40,976 bases of DNA from a virus. The stretch lies in the IMG/VR virus record IMGVR_UViG_3300034167_000617, positions 1 to 40,976 of that record, one strand, 5' to 3'. Under the pieces are notes generated by a model that was not told where the DNA came from, did no database searches, and worked only from the letters and a program-made list of their open reading frames with translations. Both the position numbers and the translations under genes were made by a program. Shown here in pieces: positions 9,022 to 40,976 of this stretch (positions are counted from its first letter, which is position 1; each line of letters starts with the position of its first letter).

Positions 9022-10344
9022 ATGAAGAAAATTGTAATCGTTGGAGCTGGAGTAGCAGGCATTAATGCTGTAACTAAATTAGTAGATAATGGATATGATG
9101 GTAGTTTAATTACTATTATTGATATGGGTAAAGACCCATATAACCGCTTACCTGAAGAGGTAATGACAGGAATGTTAGGCGCTGGTGGATGGAGTGATGG
9201 TAAATTAACATATCATACAGCTATTGGTGGCCAATTAGCTAAATATACAGGCGAGGAAAAAGCAATGGAATTAATGGATCAAGTTATTACTAACTTTAAA
9301 CGTTTCCACCCTAAACCTGAAGAAGTACAATGCTCAAATCCAATTGCTGAACCAGATTTTATTAAACCACATTTCGGTTTACGTTTATTTCCGGTATGGC
9401 ACGTTGGTACAGATTACCTATCTGAAATTGCTAAAAATTGGTACAATTATTTAGTGTCTAAAGGTGTTAAATTTATTTGGGAACATAAAGTAGAACAAAT
9501 TGATTTCGAAAATAATTTAGTTTCATATTATTGGAATAATGAAGCTGCTAAAGAAACCAAACATAAATACTATAATGAACTTATATTTGCTGTAGGTAAA
9601 TCAGGTATTGATTTCGCTCAACAATTAGCTAATCAATATGAACTACCAGACGAGCCTAAATCAGTACAAATTGGAGTTCGATTTGAAGCCCCACAAGAAC
9701 ACTTTCAGAAATTAATTGATATTAGTTACGATTTTAAATTGTATCGTAAATTTGATAATGGTGTTTCATTACGTTCATTTTGTACAAATAATAATGCGGC
9801 TTATGTAGCTGTAGAAGAAACATATGGTGATGTTACTTACAATGGTCACGCTAAAAAAGATCCTAAATATTTAAATAGAATGACTAATTTTGGTATCATT
9901 ATGGAAATTAAGGATATTGAAGATCCATTTAAATGGTGTAGAGAATTAGTAAATAAATTACAAATTAAACCTAACAATACCGGTTTATATTATTCACCTA
10001 ATGGTACTCGTAATCCATCAACCACATCTGAAGGAACTCTTATTAATACAGCCCAAGTTGATGAGATTGGATTAAAAGATATAAAACAAGAATTTCAAGG
10101 ATATTTCCAATACATTGAAGATTTTATTGAGGATATGAAAAAAGTATTTCCAACATTAGGTGATGATTGGGGAATTTACATACCAGAAGTAAAATATTTA
10201 TCACCAGAACCATTAGTTAACTATACTAATTTATCATTAACTAAATATCCAAATGTACATTTTGTTGGAGACGCATTAAGTGCAAGAGGTATAACAGTTA
10301 GTGGTGCACATGGTATTTATGTTGCCGAATCATTATTAAAATAA
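9022..10344 (+). CDS. FAD-dependent dehydrogenase, COG2509-like
   Basis: A 440-residue flavoprotein-like enzyme. Residues 4-14 form the Rossmann FAD-binding loop (IVIVGAGVAGI). GAGGWSDGKLT around residues 53-63 and HVGTDYLSEIA around 127 match the COG2509 family of uncharacterised FAD-dependent dehydrogenases, as does the C-terminal FAD motif (VHFVGDALSARGITVSGAHG, about 413-432). It is full length with no breaks. The substrate is unknown. Such an enzyme is uncommon in phages and may be an auxiliary metabolic gene. The next gene begins one base after its stop, so the two are probably co-transcribed from the promoter-like element upstream. Confidence 0.85.
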   Translation: MKKIVIVGAGVAGINAVTKLVDNGYDGSLITIIDMGKDPYNRLPEEVMTGMLGAGGWSDGKLTYHTAIGGQLAKYTGEEKAMELMDQVITNFKRFHPKPEEVQCSNPIAEPDFIKPHFGLRLFPVWHVGTDYLSEIAKNWYNYLVSKGVKFIWEHKVEQIDFENNLVSYYWNNEAAKETKHKYYNELIFAVGKSGIDFAQQLANQYELPDEPKSVQIGVRFEAPQEHFQKLIDISYDFKLYRKFDNGVSLRSFCTNNNAAYVAVEETYGDVTYNGHAKKDPKYLNRMTNFGIIMEIKDIEDPFKWCRELVNKLQIKPNNTGLYYSPNGTRNPSTTSEGTLINTAQVDEIGLKDIKQEFQGYFQYIEDFIEDMKKVFPTLGDDWGIYIPEVKYLSPEPLVNYTNLSLTKYPNVHFVGDALSARGITVSGAHGIYVAESLLK

Positions 10345-10345
10345 T

Positions 10346-11047
10346 ATGAAAACATTAGTAATGTCTGACCTACATATAGGTTCTAAAGGCTGTAATACTA
10401 AAGCCATCATAAACCTACTTAAAACTGTAGAATACGACCGCTTAATATTAGTAGGCGATATTATTGATGGGTGGTTATTCCAGCGTTATAAGAAGTTTAG
10501 CGCGGAACATAACAAAGTAATACGTAAGTTGTTTAAAATATCTAAAGAAAAAGAAATTATTTGGATATCAGGTAACCATGATGAATTCTTAAGAAAATAC
10601 ACACCTATGCAATTAGGTAATATTAAAATAGTAGACGAATTTATTGAAGGTGGTATTTGGTTTTGTCATGGAGATAAATACGATGGTATTATTAAAATGC
10701 ATTGGTTAGGTATGTTAGGTTCAATTGGTTATGATGCTGCTATTGTTATTGATAGACTATTAAAGAAAATTAATAAGAAAACAAGTTTATCTAAGTATTT
10801 AAAAGACAATGTTAAAGCTGCTGTTTCATTTATGGTTGATTATGAGCATGAAATGATTAGACAAGCTAAAAAACGCAATTGCCATACTGTTATTTGTGGA
10901 CATATTCACACACCAGCAGACAAAACTATAGATAATATTAGGTATATCAATACAGGAGATTGGATTGAAAATCAATCATATGTATTATATGAACTATCTA
11001 ATTATGAAATAGGTAGTGGAACCTTAAAATTATACAATAATAACTAA
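10346..11047 (+). CDS. LpxH-like metallophosphoesterase
   Basis: A 233-residue calcineurin-type phosphoesterase with all metal motifs in order: D8-x-H10 (SDLHIG), GDxxD at 37-41 (GDIIDG), GNHD at 76-79, a His in WFCHGD, and GHIHTP near residue 170. The architecture and length match UDP-2,3-diacylglucosamine pyrophosphatases (LpxH family), which act in lipid A synthesis at the inner-membrane surface. A phage copy could alter host lipid A or act on another phosphoester; the substrate is inference. It sits directly after the flavoprotein gene and one base before a membrane-protein gene, so an operon is likely. Confidence 0.85.
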   Translation: MKTLVMSDLHIGSKGCNTKAIINLLKTVEYDRLILVGDIIDGWLFQRYKKFSAEHNKVIRKLFKISKEKEIIWISGNHDEFLRKYTPMQLGNIKIVDEFIEGGIWFCHGDKYDGIIKMHWLGMLGSIGYDAAIVIDRLLKKINKKTSLSKYLKDNVKAAVSFMVDYEHEMIRQAKKRNCHTVICGHIHTPADKTIDNIRYINTGDWIENQSYVLYELSNYEIGSGTLKLYNNN

Positions 11048-12054: not shown

Positions 12055-12585
12055 ATGAAAATAGGTTTTTGTGGAACAATGAGTGTTGGTAAAACAACAT
12101 TAGTAAAATCATTAGGTGAATTACCTGAATTTAAAGACTACTATGTTACAACTGAACGTAGTAAATATTTAAAGGATTTAGGTATTCCATTAAATACTGA
12201 TAGTACTTTAAATGGTCAAACTATATTTTTAGCGGAACGTGTTAGTGAATTAATGCGTCCTAAATTAATTACTGATAGAACAGTTATTGATGTTATAGCA
12301 TTTGCTAAATGTGCTAAATCTATTAATGTTTTAGATAAAGAAGCGTTTGAAGATTATGCTAAATTGTTTGTTAGTCAATATGATTATATATTTTATGTAA
12401 ATCCTATTGGAACAGTTATGGAAAATAACGGAGTACGTGAAACTGATAATGAGTTTAGAAAAACAATTGATTTCTTTATTCAAAGAATTGCTGATAGATA
12501 TTCACATCGTATGAAAAATTTTGTAGAAATTAGCGGAACTAATGAAGAACGTGTTAAAAAAGTTAAAGAGACAATATTTTCATAA
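12055..12585 (+). CDS. NadR-like P-loop nucleotide kinase
   Basis: A 176-residue AAA/P-loop protein. The Walker A motif GTMSVGKTT is at residues 7-15, near the N-terminus as in kinases. TTERSKYLKDLGIP follows, resembling the TxExAR region of NadR/AAA_28-type kinases, and LITDRTVIDVIAFA supplies the D-R lid and substrate segment. The strand YDYIFYVNPIG and the NGVRETDNEFRKTID helix are typical of the same group. The substrate is probably a nucleoside or NAD precursor such as nicotinamide riboside, but that is inference. It ends the accessory block. Confidence 0.8.
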   Translation: MKIGFCGTMSVGKTTLVKSLGELPEFKDYYVTTERSKYLKDLGIPLNTDSTLNGQTIFLAERVSELMRPKLITDRTVIDVIAFAKCAKSINVLDKEAFEDYAKLFVSQYDYIFYVNPIGTVMENNGVRETDNEFRKTIDFFIQRIADRYSHRMKNFVEISGTNEERVKKVKETIFS

Positions 12586-20871: not shown

Positions 20872-21477
20872 ATGAGACAAGTATTAATTGAAACACAATT
20901 ATTCTCACCCAAAGCTGTTAGCTTAACTGAAGGAACTAATCCTGGAGGTAACCTATTAGTAAAAGGTGTATTAGCTACTGTCGAAGTAAAAAACGGTAAT
21001 GGTAGATATTACGCTAAAGAATTATGGGAACGTGAAATGGATCGCTACATGGAATCAATTCGTGAGAATAGAGCTTTAGGTGAATTAGACCACCCAGATT
21101 CTTCAATTATTAACTTAAAAAATGTTTCACATAATATTAAAAAATGCTGGTGGGATGGAAATAATGTAATGGGTATGATTGAAATCTTACCTACTCCATC
21201 TGGTAACATTTTAAAAGCATTAATCGATAGTGGTATTACAGTAGGTGTATCATCAAGAGGAATGGGTTCATTAGAACAAAAAGGTAATGTAATGGAAGTA
21301 CAAGATGACTTTGAATTACTATGTTGGGATTTCGTTTCAACACCTTCTAATCCGGGTTCATGGATGCTACCAACTAGCTTAAATGAATCATATATTCCTA
21401 GTATAAATCAATACAGTAAAATTAATTCAATTATTACTGATATTTTATGTGCTAATGGATCATGTCCGTTATTCTAA
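20872..21477 (+). CDS. gp21: Prohead protease (gp21-like)
   Basis: A 201-residue serine protease of the T4 gp21 type. The catalytic His is H74 in LGELDHPDS, and the Ser is in VGVSSRG (S127/S128). The closing motif DFVSTPSNPGSW (153-164) is typical. It cleaves scaffold, capsid protein and internal proteins after Glu in hydrophobic-x-Glu contexts during prohead maturation. Its own N-terminus carries VLIE|T and SLTE|G, sites for self-processing. The substrates predicted here are the many peptide-bearing proteins in this window. The signal-peptide nuclease gene follows after one base. Confidence 0.92.
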   Translation: MRQVLIETQLFSPKAVSLTEGTNPGGNLLVKGVLATVEVKNGNGRYYAKELWEREMDRYMESIRENRALGELDHPDSSIINLKNVSHNIKKCWWDGNNVMGMIEILPTPSGNILKALIDSGITVGVSSRGMGSLEQKGNVMEVQDDFELLCWDFVSTPSNPGSWMLPTSLNESYIPSINQYSKINSIITDILCANGSCPLF

Positions 21478-21478
21478 C

Positions 21479-22072
21479 ATGAAAAATTTATTTCTAGTAA
21501 TATTAATTTGTCTATCAACAGTAGTTTTTGGACAAACTAAATTAAGAGATAGTGTTAACTATCAAACTCCTAACTTCCGTATTGTTTATTCTGAAATTTT
21601 AGAACAACCTAAATGGGTTACCTACACAGTTAAATGTCCTACAGGTACTGCTTCTAGAGCAAGTATGGAATTCTACACAGACAAAAATATTAAAACATCT
21701 GATAACGAAGATTATGTTAATAATGAATGGGATAAAGGACATATTGCTCCTGCTGCTTCATTTAATTGTACTAAAGAAATGTTATACTCAACATTTACCT
21801 ATATTAACTCAGCAATGCAACAACAATCACTTAATCGTGGTCCTTGGAAAACATTAGAAATATGGGAACGTGAACAAGCTAAAACTACAACAGTATCAGT
21901 ATATGTTAGATTAGATTATGATAAAGTACCTAAACGTGTACCTACAAACGCGGCGATACCTAAAGGATTTTATAAAGAATTAAAAGTAGGTAATACTAAG
22001 TATTGTTATTATTTTCCTAACATCGCCCCTACATCAAAAGACTTAAATACGTTTAAGTGCAATTGTAAATAA
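21479..22072 (+). CDS. Secreted DNA/RNA non-specific endonuclease
   Basis: The ATG at 21479 gives 197 residues with a signal peptide (1-19, ending VVFGQ). The NUC1/Endonuclease_NS active site is DKGH (85-88; usually DRGH) in WDKGHIAPAASF, followed by the metal Asn N110 in YINSAMQQQSLNRGPWKTLE (109-128), whose spacing to N119 and E127 matches the family. Cys pairs in the mature part would suit the periplasm. It would degrade nucleic acid in the periplasm or outside the cell, for example from competing phages or host debris; the purpose is inference. It lies between protease and scaffold, and tandem terminators follow. Confidence 0.9.
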   Translation: MKNLFLVILICLSTVVFGQTKLRDSVNYQTPNFRIVYSEILEQPKWVTYTVKCPTGTASRASMEFYTDKNIKTSDNEDYVNNEWDKGHIAPAASFNCTKEMLYSTFTYINSAMQQQSLNRGPWKTLEIWEREQAKTTTVSVYVRLDYDKVPKRVPTNAAIPKGFYKELKVGNTKYCYYFPNIAPTSKDLNTFKCNCK

Positions 22073-26453: not shown

Positions 26454-27674
26454 ATGAATATACCTATTTGGCCTGGTTCTAGTTCATTTGCTCAAGTATC
26501 AGCTTCTTACTATAATGTTCCTTCATCAGGAATCCCTCCTACCCCGTTTGGATTTTATGATAATGAAGCCCAATTTAAAACAGACGCTGATAGTGTAGCT
26601 ATGTTTGTTACTCGTAGATTAGGATATCCTATTATGGATATTGAATTACAAGATATTAACATATATGCTGCTTTTGAAGAGGCAGTTACTACATACGGTA
26701 ATGAATTATATGCTTTTTTAACTAGAGATAATTATCTTTCGTTTGAAGGAGCTTCAACATCTATTGACGCTGATAATGCTTTAATTACTCCTTCAATGGC
26801 TAATATTGTTAGATTATCTGAACAATATGGAGAAGAAGCAGGCTCAGGAGGTAATGTTACTTGGAGAAAAGGTAGATTAACTTTAATTCCTGGAGTACAA
26901 AGATATGATTTAAAAGCTTGGGCTGAGTCTCAAGGTATTGTAGGTGGAATTGAAATTAAAAGAGTATTTTACCAACCTCCTCCAGCTGTATCTCAAATGT
27001 TTGCTCCTTTCTTAGGAACAATGGCAGGAGGTTTAGGCGGAGTACCAGCAGCTGGTGCTTATGGTTTAGGAATGGGTTATACAAATTATTTAATGATGCC
27101 TACAAGTTTTACAGCTCAAACTATTCAAGCTATTGAGATGCAAAACACTATAACATTATCTAACTATACTTTTGAAATTACAAATAATGTAATCTCAGTA
27201 TTTCCAGTTCCTGGAACTGGTTTCTTTAATGAAGAAATGGATTCTAGTTTAGATTATGGTATTTATTTAAATTTTGACTATATTGTATTACAAGAAAGAT
27301 TAGATTCAGCATTTGGTGATGGCACAAATAAAATTACTAATACATCAAATGTACCTTATACTAATCCAAACTATAATGCTTTAAATTCAGTAGGTAGAAG
27401 TTGGATATATGAATACACTTTAGCTTTAACTAAAGAAATATTAGGATATGTCAGAGGAAAATACAGTAGTGTTCCTATTCCTAATTCTGAAGTAACTTTA
27501 AATCAACAAGATTTATTATCTTCAGCTACAGCTACTAAAGACGCGTTAATTTTAAGATTAAGAGAATATTTTGATCAAACTTCACGCCAAGCATTGCTTG
27601 AAAGAAGAGCAGCTGAATCAGCAGCCCGTGTAACAGAAATAAATCAAGTACCAATGGTAATTTATATAGCATAA
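26454..27674 (+). CDS. gp13: Neck protein (gp13-like)
   Basis: A 406-residue protein. Residues 45-90 (FVTRRLGYPIMDIELQDINI then YAAFEEAVTTYGNELYAF) match the N-terminal helix-loop of T4-type gp13 neck proteins (x-RRLGxPVxxxEL followed by an acidic helix). The middle has a GRLTLIPGVQRYDLKAWA segment and a Gly/Ala-rich loop (FLGTMAGGLGGVPAAGAYGL), and the C-terminus a long helix with SARQALLERRAAES-type sequence. It is longer than T4 gp13 (309), mainly through the loop. The next two genes look like gp14 and gp15, which supports the call. It closes the head after packaging. Confidence 0.75.
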   Translation: MNIPIWPGSSSFAQVSASYYNVPSSGIPPTPFGFYDNEAQFKTDADSVAMFVTRRLGYPIMDIELQDINIYAAFEEAVTTYGNELYAFLTRDNYLSFEGASTSIDADNALITPSMANIVRLSEQYGEEAGSGGNVTWRKGRLTLIPGVQRYDLKAWAESQGIVGGIEIKRVFYQPPPAVSQMFAPFLGTMAGGLGGVPAAGAYGLGMGYTNYLMMPTSFTAQTIQAIEMQNTITLSNYTFEITNNVISVFPVPGTGFFNEEMDSSLDYGIYLNFDYIVLQERLDSAFGDGTNKITNTSNVPYTNPNYNALNSVGRSWIYEYTLALTKEILGYVRGKYSSVPIPNSEVTLNQQDLLSSATATKDALILRLREYFDQTSRQALLERRAAESAARVTEINQVPMVIYIA

Positions 27675-27675
27675 A

Positions 27676-28224
27676 ATGGCATTATTTGGAAGTACAAGAG
27701 ATGTTTCAGCTTTAAGATTTATTAATAGAGAATTAATGGGTAATATTATTACCCAACAGGTTGCTTATTATAAATTTAATCTAGGTCAAACTAGAGTTAA
27801 TATGTATGGTGAAAACGTAGAAGGTAAATTTTATATTGGACCAGTTCTATTAAGTTGTTTAATTGAAAGAAATGATCAATTATTTCCTACAAGTGATTTA
27901 GGTCCTGATTTAGTATATGGAATAGATGTAGCATTTTTAAAAGATGATTTATTAAATAAAAATTATGATTTTAATATTGATACTGAGTTTTATGGTGCTA
28001 ATTTAGTTCCACAAGTAGGAGATATTATAATGTTCCAAGAAGGATATTTTGAAGTAGATAATGTTGTAAATAATCAATTATTTGTAGGTAAAGATCCTGA
28101 ATATCCAAACAGTGTAAATCCTTTAAATCCAGGATTACAAAACTTTGGTTGGGATATTTCAATACTTTGCAAAACACATTATGTACCACAAGATAGAGTA
28201 AATATAACTAAAGCAAGATTATAA
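27676..28224 (+). CDS. gp14: Neck protein (gp14-like)
   Basis: A 182-residue protein starting two bases after the previous stop. The features fit T4-type gp14: an N-terminal INRELMGNIITQQVAYYKFN segment, RVNMYGENVEGKFYIGPVLL, then a beta-rich middle with a GDIIMFQEGYFEVDNV motif typical of head-tail connector proteins, and a short basic C-terminus. It probably forms the neck ring with the gp13-like protein. Assignment rests on these weak motifs and on gene order (13-14-15). It overlaps the next gene by one base (TAATG). Confidence 0.7.
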   Translation: MALFGSTRDVSALRFINRELMGNIITQQVAYYKFNLGQTRVNMYGENVEGKFYIGPVLLSCLIERNDQLFPTSDLGPDLVYGIDVAFLKDDLLNKNYDFNIDTEFYGANLVPQVGDIIMFQEGYFEVDNVVNNQLFVGKDPEYPNSVNPLNPGLQNFGWDISILCKTHYVPQDRVNITKARL

Positions 28225-29093
28225 TGGCAGGAAGAATACCTATACCTAAAACACAAAAAGAGATACTTGTAGATCAACAAGTACCTTTTGATGTTGAAAG
28301 AGGTAACCCTAATAAGTCTAATAATCCTAATAGAGCTACACAAACTTCTTTTAGAAATGATAATACTAAACCATTTAGTATTGGTCTTCAAGATATTGAT
28401 GGAGCTATTATGTATTACTTTCAAAATGTTATTAAACCTTTTGTAGTACAAAATGAAGAAAGAATAGAAGTTCCTGTTATATATGGTTCACCTGAAAAAT
28501 GGAAATCATATCAAAAGGATGGTTACTATAGAGATGTAAACGGTGCTATTATGGCTCCGCTTATTATGTTTAAAAGAGATAGTATAGAAAAAAATAGGAC
28601 TGTAGCTAATAAATTAGATGCTAATAAACCTAATAATTATACAGTAACAGAAAAACAATACTCTCAAGGTAATGTATATAGTAATTTTAATGTTTTAACT
28701 AACAGAGCACCAACTACTACATATTATGCTTCAGTAGTACCTGATTATTTAACATTAACTTATAGTTGTGTAGTATTTACTTACTATGTAGCTCAATTAA
28801 ATAAAATAGTAGAGGCAATTGAATATGCCTCAGATGCGTATTGGGGTAACCCAGAACAATTTCAATTCCAAACTCGTATTGACACATTTAATACAGTAAC
28901 AGAATTACAAAATGATGCTGAACGATTAGTTAGAAGTACATTTAATATTAAAGTATATGGATATATAGTTCCAGAAGTATTACAAAAAGATTTAAACTCT
29001 ATCAAGAAATTTTCAAGTAAGAGTAAAATAATTATAAATTTAGAATCAACAATAACAAACCCAACAAACGAAATACAATATGGCCAGAATTAA
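28224..29093 (+). CDS. gp15: Tail completion / sheath stabiliser (gp15-like)
   Basis: A 289-residue protein. [20 protein letters not shown] near residue 90 corresponds to the (I/V)PITYxSxE segment of T4 gp15, followed by [11 protein letters not shown], a central [20 protein letters not shown], the membrane-like but soluble strand-helix [20 protein letters not shown], and [20 protein letters not shown]-type strands. This order mirrors gp15, the hexameric ring at the top of the contractile tail. It supports a myovirus although sheath and tube genes are outside the window. The start overlaps the previous stop, and the next gene begins 14 bases before its end. Confidence 0.75.
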
Positions 29094-32000
29094 TAACTCC
29101 ATACCTAGAAATAATGTACGATTTTTAGATCAAGTATCTATAGCTTCTTTTGAAGTGCCTACTTCAGAAGGTAGTAGTGGTATTGGTACATCTGGACTTT
29201 CAGGTTTATCAGGTATTTCAGGCCTAAGTGGTACTGGTGGTTCAGGTCTTTCAGGCTTAAGTGGCATTGGTAGTTCAGGTATTTCAGGTTTATCAGGAAC
29301 AGGTACATCAGGTATCTCAGGACTAAGTGGTACTGGAACATCTGGTTTAAGTGGTTTATCAGGAACAAATGGTACAAATGGTACTTCAGGACTTTCAGGT
29401 TTAGAAGGCTTATCAGGTATAAGTGGCTTATCAGGTATAAATGGTACTTCAGGACTTTCAGGCTTAGAAGGTTTGTCAGGTTTAAGTGGTACTGGAACTT
29501 CAGGCTTATCAGGATTAAGTGGAACTGGCACCTCAGGATTAAGCGGTTTATCAGGAATTAATGGTATTTCAGGTTTAAGTGGATTAGAAGGTCTTTCAGG
29601 TCTTAGTGGTATTGGCACTTCAGGACTTTCAGGTTTAAGCGGTATTAGCTCATCTGGTATATCTGGCTTAAGTGGAATAGGTACATCAGGTATCTCAGGA
29701 TTAAGCGGTTTATCAGGAACTAATGGTACCAATGGTACTTCAGGCCTTTCAGGATTAGACGGTGTATCAGGATTAAGTGGTACAGGTATATCTGGTTTAT
29801 CAGGTTTAAGTGGTGCTTTAGGTATTTCAGGTTTAAGTGGTTTATCAGGCACAAATGGTAACTCAGGACTTTCAGGTCTTGAAGGTACATCAGGACTTTC
29901 AGGACTAAGTGGTACTGGAACATCAGGATTGTCAGGTTTAAGTGGAATAGGAACATCAGGTCTTTCTGGTTTATCTGGTACTAATGGAGCATCAGGTCTT
30001 TCAGGCCTAGAAGGTACATCAGGTATTTCAGGACTAAGTGGTACCGGAATCTCAGGACTTTCAGGTCTTAGTGGTATTAGTACTTCAGGCCTTTCAGGTT
30101 TATCAGGTATTAATGGTACTTCAGGACTTTCAGGTCTAGAAGGTACATCAGGTATAAGTGGATTAAGTGGTACTGGTCTATCTGGTCTTTCAGGATTAAG
30201 TGGTACAATTGGTACATCCGGCTTATCAGGTATTAATGGTATTTCAGGAACAAGTGGAACGGATGGTTTAAGTTGTTTAAGTTATACTGTAACCTATCAA
30301 GTAGGTGGCGGTGATTTATATTTTGATTACAATGATTGCTCGGGTGCTTTAGTAAGTGTGGGGCCTGTAACAAGTGGTTCTTTAACATTTTGTGCGCTTA
30401 GTTTCGGGAGTTCTCCCAGCATAGTTATAATTTCGGGTAATGCTACGATTTTAAGTAACGGAGTTTGCGTAGGCACAAGTGGTTTATCTGGTTTAAGCGG
30501 AACAGGAACATCAGGACTTTCAGGTCTTAGTGGAATAGGAACATCAGGTCTTTCTGGTTTATCAGGTATTAGTGGTACAAACGGAACTTCAGGTTTATCA
30601 GGTTTAGAAGGTACATCAGGTTTATCTGGTTTAAGCGGAATAGGAACTTCAGGTATTTCAGGTCTAAGTGGAATTAGTACATCAGGCTTATCAGGTATAA
30701 GTGGTTTAGAAGGTAATTCAGGCTTAAGTGGTTTATCAGGTACATCAGGTTTAAGTGGTACATTAGGTATTTCAGGATTAAGTGGTTTATCAGGAACTAG
30801 TGGTGATTCAGGTCTTTCAGGTCTATCAGGTTTAAGTGGTAATTCAGGTCTAAGTGGTACCTCAGGTCTTTTAGGTAATTCAGGTCTTTCAGGTTTAGAA
30901 GGTACATCTGGTTTAAGTGGAATAGGAACTTCAGGCTTATCAGGTATAAGTGGCTTATCAGGTACATCAGGTATAAATGGTATTTCAGGTTTAGAAGGTA
31001 CTTCAGGATTAAGTGGAATAGGAACATCAGGTCTTTCAGGTACTTCAGGTTTAAGTGGTGAAAGTGGTTTATCAGGTATAAATGGCACGTCAGGACTTTC
31101 AGGTGTATCAGGCATCTCAGGTCTAAGTGGTACTAATGGAGAGTCAGGTTTAAGTGGATTAAGTGGTACAGTAGGTACTTCAGGTATAAGTGGTTTATCC
31201 GGTCTAGAAGGTATATCAGGTTTAAGTGGTACATCAGGTTTAAATGGTACTTCAGGTATTTCTGGTTTAAGTGGCACTTTAGGTTTATCAGGTATAAGTG
31301 GCTTATCAGGTTTAGATGGCAATTCAGGTCTTTCAGGACTTTCAGGTTTAAGTGGCTTAAATGGTACATCAGGTTTATCAGGTTTAAGTGGTATTTCAGG
31401 TATAAACGGTGACTCAGGTCTTTCAGGTCTAAGTGGTACATCTGGAATTTCAGGAACATCAGGATTGTCAGGTATATCAGGTATAAACGGTGACTCAGGT
31501 CTTTCAGGCTTGTCAGGTACAAGTGGTATTTCTGGTTTAAGTGGTACATTAGGTATATCTGGTTTATCAGGTACATCAGGTATTTCAGGATTAAATGGTG
31601 ACTCAGGTCTTTCAGGTGTAAGTGGTTTATCAGGTCTCTTAGGTACATCAGGTATTTCAGGTCTAGAAGGTATATCAGGAATTTCAGGTTTATTAGGAAC
31701 TTCAGGTATAAGTGGATTAAGTGGTACTTTAGGTGTAAGTGGTCTATCAGGTATTTCAGGTTTAGAAGGTACATCAGGAATTTCAGGTTTAAGTGGTACA
31801 GTAGGTACCTCAGGCCTATCAGGTTTAAGCGGCACATCAGGTATATCAGGTATAAATGGTGACTCAGGTCTTTCAGGATTATCAGGCATCTCAGGTACAA
31901 ATGGTATTTCTGGTTTAAATGGCATATCAGGTTTATCAGGTGAAAGTGGTTTATCCGGCTTATCAGGTACATTAGGACTTTCAGGATTATCAGGTACAAG

Positions 32001-35000
32001 TGGCATTTCAGGATTATCAGGTGAATTAGGTTTATCCGGGTTAAGTGGTACATCAGGTTTATCAGGAACGAGCGGCATTTCAGGTTTATTAGGTACTTCA
32101 GGTTTAAGTGGTACATCAGGTCTTTCAGGTTTATCAGGAACTTTAGGTATAAGTGGATTAAGTGGTGAGTCTGGCTTGTCTGGAACTTCAGGCTTATCAG
32201 GTTTAAATGGTACATCAGGACTTTCTGGTTTATCAGGTACAAGCGGTATCTCAGGTACAAGCGGTATATCAGGCTTAAGTGGTACATCAGGTTTAGGATT
32301 CACAGCACAAACTGTTGGTCAATCTTTTGTAACTAATGGTTCTTTAGTAGGTACAAATATTAATTTTTATGTTGCTGATTACGGAGCATTTGCAGTAGGT
32401 AATTTTATTAATTTAGTTGACCAAACTAGTGGTAGTACATTCTACTATAATGGTAAAATAACATTAATTCAATTTGCTGGAGGATTTGGATGGGCTATCC
32501 ATATGGATGTGTTAGGTTATGGTGGAACACCAATTTCATCTCCATCTAATAGTTGGTTAATGGAATTAACAGGAGCAACGGGTACATCAGGAATTTCAGG
32601 CTTAAGTGGCTCATCTGGTCTTTCAGGTGTATCCGGTTTATCAGGAGAATCAGGTCTTTCAGGTATATCAGGAACTTCAGGACTTTCAGGCTTATCCGGT
32701 TTATCTGGTTTAAGTGGTATAGGTACATCAGGTATATCAGGACTTTCAGGTATGTCAGGTACCTCAGGTTTAAGCGGTTTATCAGGACTTTCTGGTATAG
32801 ATGGTATATCAGGTCTTTCAGGAATATCAGGCTTATCAGGATTAAGTGGCACCTCAGGATTGTCAGGTACAAGCGGTATTTCAGGCTTATCAGGTGAATC
32901 AGGCATTTCAGGATTATCAGGAACATTAGGTATAAGTGGTTTAAGTGGCACATCAGGTCTTTCAGGTTTATTAGGTGAAAGTGGTTTATCCGGTCTTAGT
33001 GGTACCTTAGGTCTCTCAGGCTTAAGTGGTGAATCAGGTTTATCAGGTACAAGCGGTATTTCAGGTTTAAGTGGTACTTCAGGCATATCAGGTTTATCAG
33101 GTGAATCAGGTTTATCTGGTCTATCAGGTTTAAGTGGTACTTCAGGTTTATTAGGAACAAGTGGCATTTCAGGCCTATCAGGTGAAAGCGGATTATCTGG
33201 TCTATCAGGTACAAGCGGTATTTCAGGTCTAAGCGGTACATCAGGTTTATCAGGTGATTCAGGACTTTCTGGTTTAAGTGGTTTATCAGGTACAAGTGGA
33301 ATATCTGGTCTAAGTGGTACTTTAGGTATAAGTGGCTTAAGTGGTGACTCAGGTCTTTCAGGATTATCAGGATTATCAGGTACATCAGGATTTTCAGGTT
33401 TAAGTGGTATATCAGGACTTTCAGGAATTGATGGTACATCAGGTCTTTCAGGATTATCAGGTACAAGCGGTATTTCAGGACTTTCAGGTTTATCAGGTGA
33501 ATTAGGTTTAAGTGGTTTATCCGGCTTAAGTGGCTCATCAGGTATTTCAGGTATAAATGGTGACTCAGGTCTTTCAGGTTTAAGTGGTACTTCAGGCATA
33601 TCAGGATTAAGTGGTACTTCAGGTACATCAGGTTTATCAGGTACAAGCGGTATTTCAGGTCTATCAGGTGAAAGTGGTTTATCAGGATTATTAGGTTTAT
33701 CAGGTTTATCAGGTATAAACGGTATTTCAGGTTTATCAGGTATTTCAGGTTTAAGCGGTGAATCCGGCTTATCAGGTACAAGTGGTACTTCAGGACTTTC
33801 AGGTTTAAGTGGTACATCTGGTTTATTAGGAGAGTCAGGATTGTCAGGTACAAGTGGTATTTCAGGCATAAATGGTAATTCAGGTTTGTCCGGGTTAAAT
33901 GGTACATCAGGCTTAAGTGGTTTATCAGGTACATCAGGCATCTCAGGATTAAGTGGTGAATCAGGTTTATCCGGAACATTAGGTATATCAGGTTTATCAG
34001 GTCTTTCAGGACTTAGTGGTTTAGAAGGTACATCAGGTCTTTCAGGACTAAGTGGCACTTCAGGACTTAGTGGTTTAGAAGGTACGTCAGGTCTCTCAGG
34101 ACTAAGTGGCACTTCAGGACTTAGTGGTTTAGAAGGTACGTCAGGTCTCTCAGGACTAAGTGGTATATCAGGAACATCAGGTATAAGTGGTCTTAATGGA
34201 GAAGCTCAATCTGGAGCATCAGGTACAAGTGGTATTTCAGGATTAAGTGGTAATGTAGGAACATCAGGACTTTCAGGTCTAAGTGGTACAGTTGGTACTT
34301 CAGGCTTATCAGGTCTTTCAGGTACTAATGGTACAAACGGAGAATCAGGATTAAGTGGTTTAAGTGGTACAATAGGTACTAGTGGTCTTTCAGGTTTAAG
34401 TGGAGCATCAGGAACAGGAGGTGGAAGTGGTACTTCAGGTCTTTCAGGTTTATCAGGTATAGATGGAACATCAGGTTTAAGTGGTACTTCAGGTATTGAA
34501 GGAATATCAGGACTTTCAGGTATAAGCGGCTTATCAGGTACATCAGGACTTTCAGGTCTTTCAGGTACATCAGGTTTAGATGGTACCGGAGGAACATCAG
34601 GTTTAAGTGGTACAAGTGGTCTATCAGGCTTAAGTGGTATTAGTGGCTTAAGTGGCACAAGTGGTCTTTCAGGAACATCAGGTTTAGATGGTACAGGAGG
34701 AACTAGTGGTTTAAGTGGTACATCAGGATTATCAGGAATATCAGGTTTATCTGGTCAAAGTGGTCTTTCAGGAACATCAGGACTTTCAGGTGAATCAGGT
34801 TTATCAGGTCAATCAGGTATAAATGGAACTTCAGGTTTAAGTGGTATTAGTGGTTTAAGTGGTACAAGCGGTTTATCAGGTATAAGTGGTTTAGATGGTA
34901 CAGGAGGAACTTCAGGATTAAGTGGTACTAGTGGTTTAAGTGGTACAAGTGGTCTATCAGGAATATCAGGTATTGATGGAACATCAGGACTAAGTGGTTT

Positions 35001-36153
35001 ATCAGGAACTAGTGGCTTAAGTGGTACAAGTGGTCTTTTAGGTACATCAGGTTTATCTGGTATCTCAGGATTAAGTGGTGAATCAGGTTTAAGTGGATTA
35101 AGTGGTACTATAGGAACTTCAGGCATCTCAGGATTAAGTGGTACTTCAGGTATAAGTGGTACAAATGGAGAATCAGGATTAAGTGGTTTATCAGGTTTAA
35201 GTGGTACAAGTGGCATTTCAGGTTTATCAGGTATAAGCGGTATTGATGGAACTTCAGGATTAAGTGGTACATCTGGTTTAAGTGGTCTTTCAGGTATAAA
35301 TGGAACTTCAGGTTTATCAGGTATATCAGGTTTATCAGGTGAAAGTGGTTTATCAGGTTTAAGTGGTACTTTAGGTTTATCAGGTCTTTCAGGCCAATCA
35401 GGTATTTCAGGTTTATCAGGAACTTCAGGTATAAGTGGTACAAACGGAGAATCAGGATTAAGTGGTACTTCAGGTCTTTCAGGAACAATAGGAACTTCAG
35501 GACTTTCAGGACTAAGTGGAATCTCAGGAACTAATGGTACAAGTGGAGAGTCAGGTCTATCAGGTTTAAGTGGTACAGTAGGAACAAGCGGTCTGTCAGG
35601 ATTAAGCGGTATATCAGGCTTATCAGGTACATCAGGAATTTCAGGATTAAGTGGTACTTCAGGTACAAATGGTGAATCAGGACTAAGTGGAATTTCAGGT
35701 CTTTCAGGAACAATAGGTACAAGTGGTATCTCAGGCTTATCAGGTACATCAGGTATTTCAGGTCTAAGTGGTACAGTTGGCACATCAGGACTTTCAGGCA
35801 CATCAGGCTTATCAGGTATATCAGGTACTCTAGCTTTAACAGGTACAACAGATAATGGTGTGATTACTTATATAAGTTCTTCAAATTCAGGACAAGTAGA
35901 AGCTAATTTTACATTTAATGGTACTAGTTTATCATTAACAGGAAGTCTTACTTCATCAGGAGACATAACAGCACCTTATATTTCCGCATCAAGTGGTATA
36001 TATGATAATTCAGGAGCAGCCGCTATACAATTTGTATATATATCATCATCTAAATTATTGACATATATAACACCTTTAACAGATGGTGATATACTCCAGT
36101 ATAGTGGAAGTGTGATGACTGGTTCAAATCTTATTGACGGAGGTACATTCTAG
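29080..36153 (+). CDS. Giant collagen-like fibre protein
   Basis: A 2357-residue protein. Residues 1-30 ([20 protein letters not shown]) form a short anchor-like head. The rest is almost wholly Gly-X-Y, mostly Gly-(Leu/Thr/Ile)-Ser, with essentially no proline; by arithmetic about 680 triplets. The first third is regularly interrupted by GT or GI dipeptides (GTGTSG, GIGTSG); later blocks are nearly perfect. Globular inserts lie at about 30265-30475 (four Cys) and 32293-32580. The last 110 residues are a beta-rich tip ([20 protein letters not shown]...). It is likely a trimeric triple-helical virion fibre; attachment site and receptor are unknown. It overlaps the gp15-like gene by 14 bases. 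Confidence 0.85.
29170..30264 (+). repeat. Collagen-like repeat block 1, with G1G interruptions
   Basis: This block encodes Gly-X-Ser triplets broken about every 12-20 residues by two-residue GT or GI units, giving GTGTSG or GIGTSG. Recurrent longer modules such as [11 protein letters not shown] also appear. Ser is written with both TCA and AGT codons throughout. Confidence 0.85.
30265..30475 (+). other. Cys-containing globular insert in fibre 1
   Basis: About 70 non-collagen residues within the fibre gene, reading [15 protein letters not shown], then a [12 protein letters not shown] segment, then LTFCALS and NGVCVG. Four Cys and alternating strands suggest a small disulfide-stabilised beta domain. 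The base composition is richer in G and C than the flanks (for example GTGTGGGGCC), hinting at a separate origin. Confidence 0.6.
32293..32580 (+). other. Second globular insert in fibre 1
   Basis: About 95 non-collagen residues: [19 protein letters not shown], a [19 protein letters not shown] strand region, [12 protein letters not shown] and [13 protein letters not shown]. It is predicted to be a beta-sandwich and returns to the repeat with LTGATGTSG. It may be a receptor-binding or bend-forming module; no family recognised. Confidence 0.6.
34009..34170 (+). repeat. 54-bp tandem repeat, three copies, in fibre 1
   Basis: Copies start at 34009, 34063 and 34117 (18 codons each: [18 protein letters not shown]). 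Copies 2 and 3 are nearly identical and copy 1 differs at a few silent positions, which indicates recent in-frame duplication. Confidence 0.85.
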
Positions 36154-36156
36154 GTA

Positions 36157-36164
36157 TATTTATA
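36157..36164 (+). promoter_or_regulatory. TATTTATA late-promoter-like element before fibre 2
   Basis: TATTTATA starts 46 bases before the ATG at 36203, in the 49-base gap between the two fibre genes. The gap also holds CCTATATAGG, a short palindrome at 36170-36179. Confidence 0.3.
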
Positions 36165-36202
36165 CGAGACCTATATAGGTATCCTTTATATAAACCATAG
36201 AT

Positions 36203-39200
36203 ATGGCCCAAAAAATAAAATTACGCAGAAGTTCTGTAGCAGGGAATGCCCCTACTACAACCCAATTAGAACTGGGAGAGTTAGCTATCAATACAAATGA
36301 TGGTAAAATATATTTTGAAAAATCATCTTCAGTAGGAGAATCAATTCAACAAATAGTTGTAACAGATGCTTGGATTACAGGGTCAGTTAATGTATCAGGA
36401 TCAATTGCTGTATCAGGTAGTGTAACCTTTCCTAATATTCCTCAAGGTACAACTGAAACTAATATTGTATTAAAAGACTCTAATGGTAATTTAGTTTATA
36501 GATCAGATTTAAATATATCAGGTCTATCTGGTCTTTCAGGTACTTCAGGATTAAGTGGAACAAGTGGACTATCAGGTCAATCAGGACTTTCAGGTGCAAG
36601 TGGTTTATCAGGTACATCAGGTATTGATGGTACAAGTGGATTATCAGGCTTAAGTGGTACTTCAGGACTTTCAGGAACATCAGGTCAAAATGGTGCTTCA
36701 GGTCAGGTTGGTACAAGCGGTTTAAGTGGAACTTCAGGTTTATCAGGTGTATCAGGTACAAGTGGCTTAAGTGGCACTTCAGGTATAGATGGTACTTCAG
36801 GTTTAAGTGGTACATCAGGTCTTTCAGGAACATCAGGTCAAAATGGTACTTCAGGACAAGTAGGAACAAGTGGCTTAAGTGGTACATCAGGTCTATCAGG
36901 AACATCAGGTATAGATGGTACTTCAGGTCTTTCAGGTACATCAGGTATAAGTGGTAGAAGTGGTATTTCAGGTTTATCAGGTACATCTGGTTTATCCGGT
37001 GATTCTGGTTTATCAGGTTTATCAGGTACTTCAGGGTTAAGTGGTATTTCAGGAACAAATGCTGGTATAACATCTTATACCAATCCAGGTAATGACCGTG
37101 TTATAACATCAGTAAATGCAAGTACAATAAATTCTGAAGCTAATTTAACATTTAATGGTTCACTTTTAAGAGTATCATCTTCAATACGGATTACTAGTGG
37201 TTCTGAAAGTTTTGACATAAATCAAGGAGCAAATCCTACCCAATCAATAGCTATTGGTGGTACTATATTAACAAATAATACAATAGGACAATTAAATATT
37301 GGTATAGGTGATGGAGCTCTTACAAACAATACTACAGGTCAAGAAAATACTGCTATTGGTTTATATGCATTACAAGTAAACTCAACTGGCAATTATAATG
37401 TAGCTGTAGGTAATTTAGCTTTACAAAATACATCAGGTAGTAATAATACAGCACTTGGATATTCAGCAGGAGGTGGTGGAGGTGTTGATTCATCAACATC
37501 AGCTTCAGTATTTATAGGTTATAATACTACTCCTAATAGTAATAATCAAGTTAACCAAATTGTTATAGGAGCAGATGCTGGAGGTAATGGTTCTAACACA
37601 ACAGTAATAGGTAATTCAAATACTGTTAGTACACAATTACGAGGAACTATAACAGGTTCAGGAGTAAAATTAACAGCTATACCAGTAGGTACAACTGAAG
37701 ATAGAATATTAGTATCAAATAATTCAGGAAATATATTCTATAGAACTAATTTAAGTCTATCAGGTTCATCTGGTTTATCAGGAACTTCAGGATTAAGTGG
37801 TACTTCAGGTTTATCAGGACAATCAGGAATCTCAGGTTTAGAAGGTATATCAGGTTTAAGTGGTCGTTCAGGTTTATCCGGTCTCTCAGGTTTATCCGGT
37901 GTTGATGGAATTTCTGGTATATCAGGTTTAAGTGGTCAAGTTGGAACTTCAGGTCAAGTTGGAACAAGTGGTATTTCAGGTTTAAGTGGTGCAGTAGGCA
38001 CATCGGGTATCTCAGGTCTAAGTGGTCAAATAGGCGCTTCAGGACAAATTGGAACTTCAGGCTTAAGTGGATTAAGCGGTCAAGTAGGAGCATCAGGACA
38101 AATTGGTACTTCAGGATTAAGTGGTACTTCAGGTCTATCAGGAACATCAGGACAAGTAGGTGCTTCAGGCCAAGTAGGAACTTCAGGCTTAAGCGGTACG
38201 TCAGGATTAAGTGGCACAAGTGGTCTTTCAGGAACATCAGGTCAAAATGGGGCTTCAGGTCAAGTAGGAACATCAGGTCTTTCAGGCCAATCAGGTATAA
38301 ATGGTACAAGTGGTTTAAGTGGAACTTCAGGCTTATCAGGCACAAGTGGTTTATCAGGAACTTCAGGACAAAATGGTGCCTCAGGTCAAGTCGGAACTTC
38401 AGGTCTTTCAGGCACAAGTGGTATTTCAGGTACATCGGGTATCTCAGGTCAATCAGGACAAGTTGGAGCATCAGGCCAAATAGGAACAAGTGGTTTAAGT
38501 GGTACATCAGGTTTATCAGGTACAAGTGGTCTTTCAGGTCAATCAGGCCAAGTAGGAGCCTCAGGACAAGTTGGTACTTCAGGTTTAAGTGGTACAAGTG
38601 GTTTAAGCGGTACTTCAGGACTTTCAGGCACAAGTGGTATATCAGGAGCTTCAGGCCAAGTTGGAGCATCAGGCCAAATTGGAACATCAGGACTTTCAGG
38701 AACTTCAGGTTTATCAGGTCAATCAGGTATTAATGGTGCCTCAGGCCAAGTTGGTACTTCAGGCTTAAGTGGTACTAGTGGCTTAAGTGGTACTTCTGGT
38801 TTAAGTGGTACAAGCGGTTTATCAGGAACATCAGGTCAAAATGGAGCTTCGGGTCAAGTTGGTACAAGCGGTTTATCAGGAACATCAGGACTTTCAGGTA
38901 CATCAGGTCAAGTAGGTGCATCAGGTCAAGTAGGAACAAGTGGTATTTCAGGTCTAAGTGGCCAAGTTGGTGCCTCAGGACAAGTAGGAGCATCAGGTCA
39001 AGTAGGAACAAGCGGTATATCAGGACTTTCAGGCCAATCAGGTCAAATTGGCGCTTCAGGCCAAATAGGTACAAGTGGTATTTCAGGACTAAGTGGTACA
39101 AGTGGCATATCAGGTTTAAGTGGCACATCAGGTATATCAGGACTTTCAGGCCAATCAGGTCAAGTAGGCGCTTCAGGACAAGTAGGAACAAGTGGTATTT

Positions 39201-40976
39201 CAGGCCTAAGTGGCCAAGTAGGCGCTTCAGGCCAAGTAGGTACATCAGGTATAAGTGGTTTAAGTGGTCAAGTTGGCGCATCGGGTCAAGTAGGTGCTTC
39301 AGGCCAAGTTGGAACTAGTGGCATTTCAGGTTTATCAGGACAATCAGGTCAAGTTGGTACATCAGGCCAAATAGGAACATCAGGTATAAGTGGTCTTTCA
39401 GGTCAAGTCGGCGCTTCAGGACAAGTCGGAGCATCAGGACAAGTTGGAACATCAGGACTTTCAGGTCAAGTAGGTGCTTCAGGACAAGTCGGAGCCTCAG
39501 GACAGGTGGGTACAAGTGGTCTTTCAGGCCAAGTTGGCGCCTCAGGTCAAGTAGGTGCATCAGGTCAAGTTGGTACAAGTGGTATTTCAGGTTTAAGTGG
39601 CCAAGTAGGAGCATCAGGTCAAGTAGGAACAAGCGGTATATCAGGACTTTCAGGCCAATCAGGTCAAGTCGGTGCTTCAGGTCAAGTTGGAACTAGTGGC
39701 ATAAGTGGATTAAGCGGTCAAGTCGGTGCTTCAGGCCAAGTTGGAGCATCAGGACAAGTAGGTACTTCAGGACTTTCAGGCCAAGTTGGTGCTTCAGGCC
39801 AAGTCGGCGCTTCAGGCGCAGTAGGTGCTTCAGGTGCTGTAGGTATTTCAGGACTTTCAGGCCAAGTAGGAGCATCAGGACAGGTAGGTACAAGTGGCCT
39901 TTCAGGTCAAGTAGGTGCTTCAGGTCAAGTAGGTGCTTCAGGTCAAGTTGGAACAAGTGGTCTTTCAGGCTTAAGCGGTCAAGTTGGTGCGTCAGGACAA
40001 GTTGGAGCATCAGGCCAAGTTGGAACTAGTGGCATAAGTGGATTAAGCGGTCAAGTCGGTGCTTCAGGCCAAGTTGGTGCTTCAGGACAAGTCGGAGCTT
40101 CAGGAGCAGTAGGTGCTTCAGGACAAGTAGGAGCGTCAGGTCAAGTTGGAACAAGTGGTCTCTCAGGACAAGTTGGTGCTTCAGGACAGGTAGGAGCATC
40201 AGGTCAAGTTGGTACATCAGGTTTATCAGGAACATCAGGTCTTTCGGGTTTAGTAGGTCCTGTAGCAGGATCAGCAAACCAAGTGGTTTATAAAAATGGA
40301 TCTAATGTAGCTGCAGGTTCAAATAACTTTAGTTTTGAGGACGTAACTCAAGTTTTATTTGTAAGTGGAAGTATTGCATCAGCAACTAAGATGACTACTC
40401 CAAATATTAGATTAAATAATGTAGGAGCAGGAAGTACTGAAAATAAAATTTTATTATTAGATGCATCAAATGATATAGTATATAGAACTGATTTATCTTT
40501 ATCTGGTTTATCAGGTACATCAGGTTTATCAGGTCAATCAGGCCAAGTTGGTGCTTCAGGACAGGTAGGAGCATCAGGTCAAGTAGGTGCCTCAGGCCAA
40601 GTTGGAACATCTGGTTTAAGTGGTCAAGTCGGAGCTTCAGGTCAAGTCGGAGCTTCAGGACAGGTAGGTACTTCAGGTCTCTCAGGACAAGTTGGTGCTT
40701 CAGGCCAAGTAGGCGCCTCAGGACAAGTAGGAGCTTCAGGACAAGTAGGAACAAGTGGTCTCTCAGGACAAGTTGGTGCTTCAGGTCAAGTTGGAGCTTC
40801 AGGCCAAGTTGGTACTTCAGGTCTAAGTGGTCAAGTTGGAGCTTCAGGTCAAGTCGGTGCTTCAGGACAGGTAGGTACTTCAGGTCTCTCAGGACAAGTA
40901 GGAGCATCAGGTCAAGTAGGCGCTTCAGGCCAAGTAGGCGCCTCAGGACAAGTCGGTGCTTCAGGACAGGTAGGTA
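36203..40976 (+). CDS. Second giant collagen-like tail fibre, 3' end outside window
   Basis: The ATG at 36203 opens a frame that stays open for about 1590 codons to the window edge. Residues 1-45 ([37 protein letters not shown]) are the classic N-terminal module of phage tail-fibre proteins. Three linker modules of the type TE(N/D)xI(V/L)...(V/I)(V/F)YR(S/T)(D/N)L(N/S) lie at about 36440-36540, 37680-37770 and 40400-40510, each followed by Gly-X-Y blocks. Bases 37050-37670 encode a YadA-head-like domain ([20 protein letters not shown]...). Late blocks change to [13 protein letters not shown]. It is probably a long host-recognition fibre. Confidence 0.85.
37237..37640 (+). other. YadA-head-like beta-roll domain in fibre 2
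   Basis: Repeats of about 14 residues with IG or VG and NT(A/G) motifs: [20 protein letters not shown], then [19 protein letters not shown], then [10 protein letters not shown]. This is the left-handed beta-roll pattern of trimeric autotransporter heads (Hep_Hag type), which here would form a trimeric adhesive knob between collagen-like shafts. Confidence 0.7.
39683..39744 (+). repeat. 62-bp perfect direct repeat, copy 1
   Basis: Identical to 40016-40077 and offset by 333 bp (111 codons), within the GQVGASG region of fibre 2. This indicates a recent duplication or gene conversion. Confidence 0.85.
40016..40077 (+). repeat. 62-bp perfect direct repeat, copy 2
   Basis: Second copy of the sequence at 39683-39744, running from CAAGTTGGAACTAG to GCCAAGTTGG. 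Confidence 0.85.

What the first reader, a model, noticed from the sequence alone, without database searches (positions are those of the whole stretch)
29080..40976. Two giant, nearly proline-free collagen-like fibres
Over 11 kb encodes Gly-X-Y repeats with Ser in most Y positions and Leu, Thr or Ile in X, almost without proline. Collagen-like triple helices usually depend on proline (or charged pairs); a Gly-Leu-Ser type helix of this length would be unusual, perhaps stabilised by trimeric knobs or by Ser/Thr glycosylation. Alternatively the repeat adopts another Gly-rich fold.
Basis: partly seen in the sequence, partly recalled or inferred. Interest (0 to 1): 0.75.

Follow-up and report, generated by a model that had tools for sequence, protein, structure and literature searches.

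The report
Giant proline-free collagen-like phage fibres
A T4-like phage, probably of flavobacteria, carries two very long genes for knob-and-stalk fibres whose stalks have the collagen Gly-X-Y pattern but almost no proline; the kind is known and the proline-free type proves fairly common in environmental phages, but the length is extreme and what keeps such a stalk stable is untested.

Summary
Two adjacent genes (29080-36153, 2357 aa; 36203-end, >=1591 aa, cut by the contig end) hold about 670 and 390 Gly-X-Y triplets. Among 2120 X/Y positions there is one proline (about 78 expected), and Ser fills 72-81% of Y. Every register Gly is kept while its third codon base varies, and Y-Ser uses both TCN and AGY, so the protein is under selection.

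The genes lie between neck genes and, in relatives, the tail sheath of a T4-like myovirus related to Flavobacterium phage immuto. Relatives show a knob-and-stalk mosaic: a fixed N-terminus, stalks of varying length, exchangeable knobs (CBM5/12, beta-roll) and sometimes an S74 chaperone end. In one relative the same cap follows a conventional proline-rich stalk, so both stalk types probably share the collagen triple helix.

Best reading: very long (about 0.6 um for p1) homotrimeric host-recognition fibres. Phage collagen fibres are known. Proline-free ones are not rare: 21 of 117 sampled viral Gly-X-Y proteins have under 1% proline, 13 of those also low-charge and Ser-rich. Glycosylation has no support here. 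Triple-helix formation, stability and presence in virions remain untested.

The parts
26454..27674 (+). neck/head-completion protein (gp13-like position), upstream anchor of the operon
   Evidence: PHROG 211 head-tail adaptor Ad2; 36% identical to immuto gp61 'putative head completion protein'
28224..29093 (+). conserved neck-module gene just upstream of the fibres, overlapping p1 by 14 nt; used to find relatives
   Evidence: 51% identical to immuto gp57; 104 viral contigs encode relatives
29080..36153 (+). p1, knob-and-stalk collagen-like fibre, 2357 aa, complete
   Evidence: PHROG tail fibre / collagen-like minor tail
29080..29184 (+). p1 N-terminal segment [30 protein letters not shown], conserved across relatives
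29185..30273 (+). p1 stalk 1 (Gly-X-Ser with many five-residue interruptions)
30274..30471 (+). p1 knob 1, four cysteines, no family match
30472..32298 (+). p1 stalk 2 (longest uninterrupted run 141 triplets); identity to L012 ends at 30482
32299..32571 (+). p1 knob 2, no family match
32572..35832 (+). p1 stalk 3 (runs of 164 and 180 triplets)
35833..36150 (+). p1 C-terminal domain ([33 protein letters not shown]... cap)
   Evidence: first ~39 residues shared with caps of relatives
36203..40975 (+). p2, second collagen-like fibre, at least 1591 aa, cut by the contig end
36203..36520 (+). p2 N-terminal module ([10 protein letters not shown]...[16 protein letters not shown]), predicted virion-attachment end
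   Evidence: at least 254 viral contigs carry relatives; PHROG 17885 tail fibre and 32294 baseplate wedge; AF2 pLDDT 82, beta-rich
36521..37060 (+). p2 stalk 1, 60 triplets
37061..37762 (+). p2 knob with NTAIGxxALxxNTTG beta-roll-type repeats between two recurring stalk adapters
   Evidence: 61% identical knob in L004; PHROG tail spike / virion structural; AF2 low confidence
37763..40264 (+). p2 stalk 2, 278 uninterrupted triplets ([15 protein letters not shown] type)
40265..40504 (+). p2 small knob [14 protein letters not shown]...YRTDLSLS (cap plus adapter); the same cap follows a proline-rich stalk in L044
40505..40975 (+). p2 stalk 3, open at the contig end

Best explanation
p1 and p2 are homotrimeric knob-and-stalk fibres of a T4-like myovirus. 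The N-terminus fixes the fibre to the virion at the neck, tail or baseplate. Long Gly-X-Ser stalks form a collagen-type parallel triple helix that acts as a thin spacer, about 0.59 um for p1 and at least 0.33 um for p2 at 0.286 nm per residue. The trimeric globular inserts and ends start and clamp the helix and carry the binding surfaces for the host. Without proline, stability would have to come from sheer length, from the trimeric clamps, from Ser/Thr/Gln hydration and from low ambient temperature. Shown here: Gly periodicity under selection, tail operon, domain modularity, stalk-length turnover. Inferred: trimer, triple helix, virion location, receptor binding.
For: Strict register: 0 non-Gly at 1060 register positions although third bases vary. 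Y-Ser is coded by both TCN (373) and AGY (172) in p1, so Ser is kept at protein level. Interruptions in p1 are almost all one class, five-residue units (G-Z-G-X-S or G-X-S-Z-S), the commonest class in relatives too (105 of 161). Pfam Collagen and PHROG tail-fibre / collagen-like minor tail hits. Fibre genes lie between the neck genes and the tail sheath in relatives. Relatives carry S74 endosialidase-chaperone ends and CBM5/12 knobs. Stalk types interchange: the cap [14 protein letters not shown]...FDGTTLTV follows a conventional GPT/GAQ collagen stalk in L044 and proline-free stalks in p2 and others, and the p2 N-module sits on proline-rich (L261) and proline-free (L253, L283) stalks. Total protein length in the p1 slot varies from 1387 to 3624 aa beside neighbours that are about 90-95% identical at DNA level. 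Phage collagen domains from E. coli O157 prophages are proven trimeric triple helices that melt at 42 C (PMC3368898).
Against: No solved triple helix made of Gly-Leu/Thr/Ile-Ser was found. An additive host-guest estimate, using propensity values recalled from Persikov 2000 and not retrieved, puts p1 in the lowest 9% of sampled viral stalks (mean about 26 versus a median of 33 on that scale). Trimer formation could not be modelled. Fold searches of the two modelled domains gave nothing. No recognised trimerisation domain was identified in p1 itself. No virion proteomics exists for this phage. Some distant Thr-rich relatives do replace register Gly (42 cases), so the register is not absolute across the family.
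Confidence: 0.68

Rival explanations
1. The Gly-X-Ser stretches form bundled polyglycine-II / PPII helices connected by turns, as in phage S16 gp38 or snow flea antifreeze protein, rather than a three-chain helix.
For: Gly every third residue without proline is the pattern of such bundles, and PPII bundles exist in a phage adhesin (PMC6851490). An untwisted PPII trimer has been described as an alternative collagen geometry (PMC11869133).
Against: Runs of up to 180 and 278 triplets have no turns, while gp38 has ten short motifs in a 73-residue domain with loops. Flanking domains and relatives look like trimeric fibre parts. Proline-rich collagen stalks take the same place.
Confidence: 0.12
2. 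The stalks are not folded helices but flexible, hydrated, largely disordered linkers between knobs, with Gly kept for flexibility.
For: Low predicted helix propensity (values recalled); Ser/Gly-rich low-complexity sequence; few charged residues.
Against: A disordered linker needs no strict three-residue Gly register (0 exceptions in 1060) nor one single class of interruption. Leu/Ile at 65% of X in p1 is unlike usual disordered linkers.
Confidence: 0.13
3. A collagen triple helix stabilised by O-glycosylation of Ser/Thr.
For: Ser/Thr make up about half of all X/Y positions. A collagen-like protein of Bacillus spores (BclA) is glycosylated (PMC8968730).
Against: No glycosyltransferase family among the window genes scanned; the phage genome is incomplete and host enzymes are unknown. 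Relatives and p2 use Gln/Val/Ala as well, with fewer sites.
Confidence: 0.07

Closest known systems
E. coli O157 prophage collagen-like proteins EPclA/EPclB (PMC3368898)
   Same: phage fibre proteins with N- and C-terminal globular domains, internal domains and Gly-X-Y stalks; proven trimers
   Different: short stalks with more imino and charged residues; Tm 42 C; no relation outside the repeat was tested
Host recognition cluster proteins of pelagimyophages (PMC7029224)
   Same: T4-like phage structural region holding collagen repeats, major tropism determinant and YadA-type domains
   Different: different phage group and hosts; the paper does not describe proline-free giant stalks in the passages read
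Synechococcus phage S-CBS2 gp052 (triple helix repeat-containing collagen)
   Same: same N-terminal module as p2 (61% over residues 1-51), followed by Gly-X-Y repeats
   Different: 22 triplets with 20% Pro in X/Y
Flavobacterium phage vB_FspM_immuto gp52 'putative tail fiber-like protein'
   Same: same operon region; its ends are homologous to the ends of collagen-bearing fibres in relatives L044 and L009
   Different: no Gly-X-Y stalk in the immuto structural region
Salmonella phage S16 gp38 polyglycine sandwich
   Same: Gly-rich PPII-type helices in a phage adhesin
   Different: monomeric, short loop-linked motifs, poly-Gly rather than Gly-X-Ser

Membership tests
Collagen triple helix repeat proteins (PF01391) | Gly at every third residue over long runs | tested here: met
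   670 and 390 triplets, no non-Gly in register; Pfam 813 and 533 bits
Collagen triple helix repeat proteins (PF01391) | substantial Pro (or charged pairs) in X/Y | tested here: not met
   1 Pro in 2120 positions; few charged residues. This is a usual property, not part of the sequence definition
Collagen triple helix repeat proteins (PF01391) | three chains in a right-handed superhelix | not testable with these tools
   no trimer modelling or spectroscopy available
Phage collagen-like tail fibres (PHROG 1806, 5073, 6320 and others) | encoded in the tail/neck structural operon | tested here: met
   downstream of neck genes; upstream of the sheath in relatives
Phage collagen-like tail fibres (PHROG 1806, 5073, 6320 and others) | N-terminal module shared with other tail fibres | tested here: met
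   p2 residues 1-61 hit tail fibre and baseplate PHROGs. The p1 N-terminus is conserved only in relatives of this group
Phage collagen-like tail fibres (PHROG 1806, 5073, 6320 and others) | present in virions | not testable with these tools
   uncultured phage; no proteomics found
S74 / endosialidase-chaperone trimeric fibres | C-terminal Peptidase_S74 domain | tested here: inconclusive
   present in relatives L012 and L014; absent from p1; p2 is cut before its C-terminus
YadA-type trimeric adhesin head | YadA_head profile match or left-handed parallel beta-roll | tested here: inconclusive
   no Pfam match for the p2 knob; AF2 mean pLDDT 58 with regularly spaced short strands; no PDB match
Polyglycine-II sandwich (S16 gp38) | short Gly-rich helices joined by turns into a bundle | tested here: not met
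   uninterrupted runs of up to 180 and 278 triplets
Scl/Lcl bacterial collagen-like adhesins (NCBIfam names) | LPXTG cell-wall anchor or Lcl end domains | tested here: not met
   model hits cover only Gly-X-Y; p1 ends ...[10 protein letters not shown] with no LPXTG; phage operon

The most novel reading that the evidence does not exclude
A natural collagen triple helix (or an untwisted PPII trimer) more than 0.5 um long that is stable with essentially no proline, no charged pairs and no sugars, using Leu/Ile/Thr in X and Ser in Y; this would define a separate sequence rule for collagen stability that many environmental phages share.
Probability: 0.35. Interest if true: 0.68.

Novelty: new variant of a known kind. 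Interest (0 to 1): 0.45.

Why it matters
Collagen stability is usually explained by imino acids and salt bridges. A widespread phage stalk that keeps the Gly register but has neither would be a natural test of the minimum needed for a triple helix and a source of proline-free collagen materials. The swapping of knobs along such stalks also bears on how phages change hosts in nature.

Tried and rejected
Chance or compositional origin: rejected by shuffles and by the Pro expectation from neighbouring genes. DNA-level repeat expansion without protein selection: rejected by synonymous diversity and by two Ser codon families. Assembly artefact: no exact repeat of 100 bp or more, and two independent assemblies (L002, L003) agree on the same stalk pattern. 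Long minus-strand ORFs (up to 658 aa): mirror frames of the Gly-X-Y codons, not genes. NCBIfam 'Lcl' and 'SclB' names above cut-off: artefacts of the repeat. AlphaFold of the p2 knob and N-module followed by a PDB fold search gave no usable match. phmmer of the p2 N-module against PDB returned only antibody chains, judged chance. The Nilsson 2020 paper on Baltic Flavobacterium phages, fetched in the hope of virion proteomics for immuto, does not mention it. No paper with a table of host-guest values was found, so rests on recalled values and is used only for ranking.

Full report
Observation. The window is a complete IMG/VR record of 40,976 bases. Two forward ORFs fill its last 12 kb: p1 29080-36153 (2357 aa) and p2 36203-40975 (1591 aa, no stop before the contig ends). 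p1 has 670 and p2 390 Gly-X-Y triplets. p1 has Leu/Thr/Ile in X and Ser in 81% of Y. p2 has Gln/Leu/Thr/Ala in X, Ser in 72% and Val in 23% of Y. One Pro occurs among 2120 X/Y positions where about 78 are expected at the 3.7% of the other window genes; shuffles of p1 never give a run above 14 triplets, against 180 and 278 observed. Pfam Collagen scores 813 and 533 bits.

Selection. Gly codons vary in their third base (diversity 0.49 and 0.60) while no register position in either protein holds a non-Gly. Ser in Y of p1 is coded 373 times by TCN and 172 times by AGY. The DNA repeats are therefore old and diverged and the protein pattern is maintained. No exact repeat reaches 100 bp, so the assembly is credible. 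Interruptions inside p1 stalks are almost all five-residue units such as G-T-G-T-S; the same class dominates in relatives (105 of 161), while 42 cases of a replaced Gly occur, mostly in Thr-rich distant relatives.

Setting. Terminase, portal, protease and capsid genes are T4-like, nearest to Flavobacterium phage immuto (59.5% terminase), then Microcystis phage Mel-JY01 and Rhodothermus phage RM378. The gene just before p1 is homologous to immuto gp57. In relatives with longer contigs the fibre genes are followed by the contractile tail sheath and tube. A flavobacterial host is likely but inferred.

Relatives. A search with the upstream gene gave 80 loci (104 found); most of those with enough downstream sequence carry Ser-rich, Pro-free Gly-X-Y ORFs. 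Collapsing the repeats shows a mosaic: a fixed N-terminus [24 protein letters not shown], stalks of varying length, and knobs that change from phage to phage. CBM5/12 modules occur in L003, and Peptidase_S74 chaperone ends in L012 and L014. Total length in the p1 slot runs from 1387 to 3624 aa, while the neighbouring DNA is about 90-95% identical. L012 is 100% identical to the window for 1973 bp and then departs at 30482, just inside the stalk after knob 1, which suggests recombination in the stalk that swaps distal parts; both are metagenome assemblies, so this single case is not proof.

Stalk types are exchangeable. The same cap ([10 protein letters not shown]...FDGTTLTV) that follows a proline-free stalk in p2 follows a conventional GPT/GAQ stalk in L044. 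The p2 N-terminal module is on at least 254 viral contigs; in the best 80 it precedes proline-rich stalks (L261), proline-free stalks (L253/L254, L283) and, mostly, non-collagen bodies. This is the strongest indirect evidence that proline-free stalks adopt the same fold as ordinary phage collagen.

How unusual is the composition? A scan of viral contigs with a pattern that fixes only the Gly positions gave 117 usable Gly-X-Y proteins. Median Pro in X/Y is 13.5%; 21 are below 1%, 16 of these also have under 10% charged residues, and 13 of those also have Ser in more than half of Y. Proline-free Ser-rich stalks are thus a recurrent phage type. The length is extreme: the survey's maximum is 663 triplets, although its loci are cut short, while relatives of p1 reach about 950.

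Mechanism. Phage collagen domains are known to be trimeric triple helices (PMC3368898). Bacterial collagens without hydroxyproline gain stability with length up to about 150 residues (PMC7824840) and from hydration by polar residues (PMC8968730). p1 and p2 would rely on length, caps and polar Y residues. By an additive estimate with recalled host-guest values p1 ranks in the lowest 9% of viral stalks, so the fibre may be built for cool water, but this is a ranking, not a melting temperature. At 0.286 nm per residue (textbook rise) the p1 stalks span about 590 nm.

Known and new. Collagen repeats with tropism-determinant and YadA-type domains in T4-like phages are already reported (PMC7029224), so the kind is known. 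What is added here is the size, the near absence of proline, its frequency among viral Gly-X-Y proteins, and the stalk and knob exchange. Unproven: triple helix, trimer, virion presence, receptor binding, and absence of glycosylation.

Noticed in passing
window 30327-32303 (-), 32517-34112 (-), 34809-35801 (-): Long antisense ORFs rich in Pro (PxxP patterns) are mirror frames of the Gly-X-Y codons; automated gene callers could mistake them for genes.
   Followed up: partly
window 29080-40975: NCBIfam equivalog models for Lcl and SclB adhesins score above their curated cut-offs purely on the Gly-X-Y repeat, an annotation hazard for phage collagens.
   Followed up: yes
window 9022-10344, 10346-11047, 12055-12585, 21449-22072: FAD/NAD oxidoreductase-like, metallophosphatase, deoxynucleoside-kinase-like and DNA/RNA non-specific endonuclease genes in the phage late region.
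   Followed up: no
L077 10478-12211 and 12267-13610 (continuing into L107): Two tandem copies of a tail-sheath-like gene in one relative.
   Followed up: no
L003, 8 knobs after residue 2000 of the fibre ORF: Repeated CBM5/12-like carbohydrate-binding knobs threaded on one Gly-X-Y stalk, suggesting multivalent glycan binding.
   Followed up: partly
L044 17891-20831: Three consecutive ORFs downstream of the proline-rich collagen fibre made of NTAIGxxAL-type repeats, like the p2 knob.
   Followed up: no
L026, L034, L073, L079: Thr/Ser-rich relatives replace a register Gly at regular places (GTSATAG, GTSETSG), a different interruption style from the window.
   Followed up: partly
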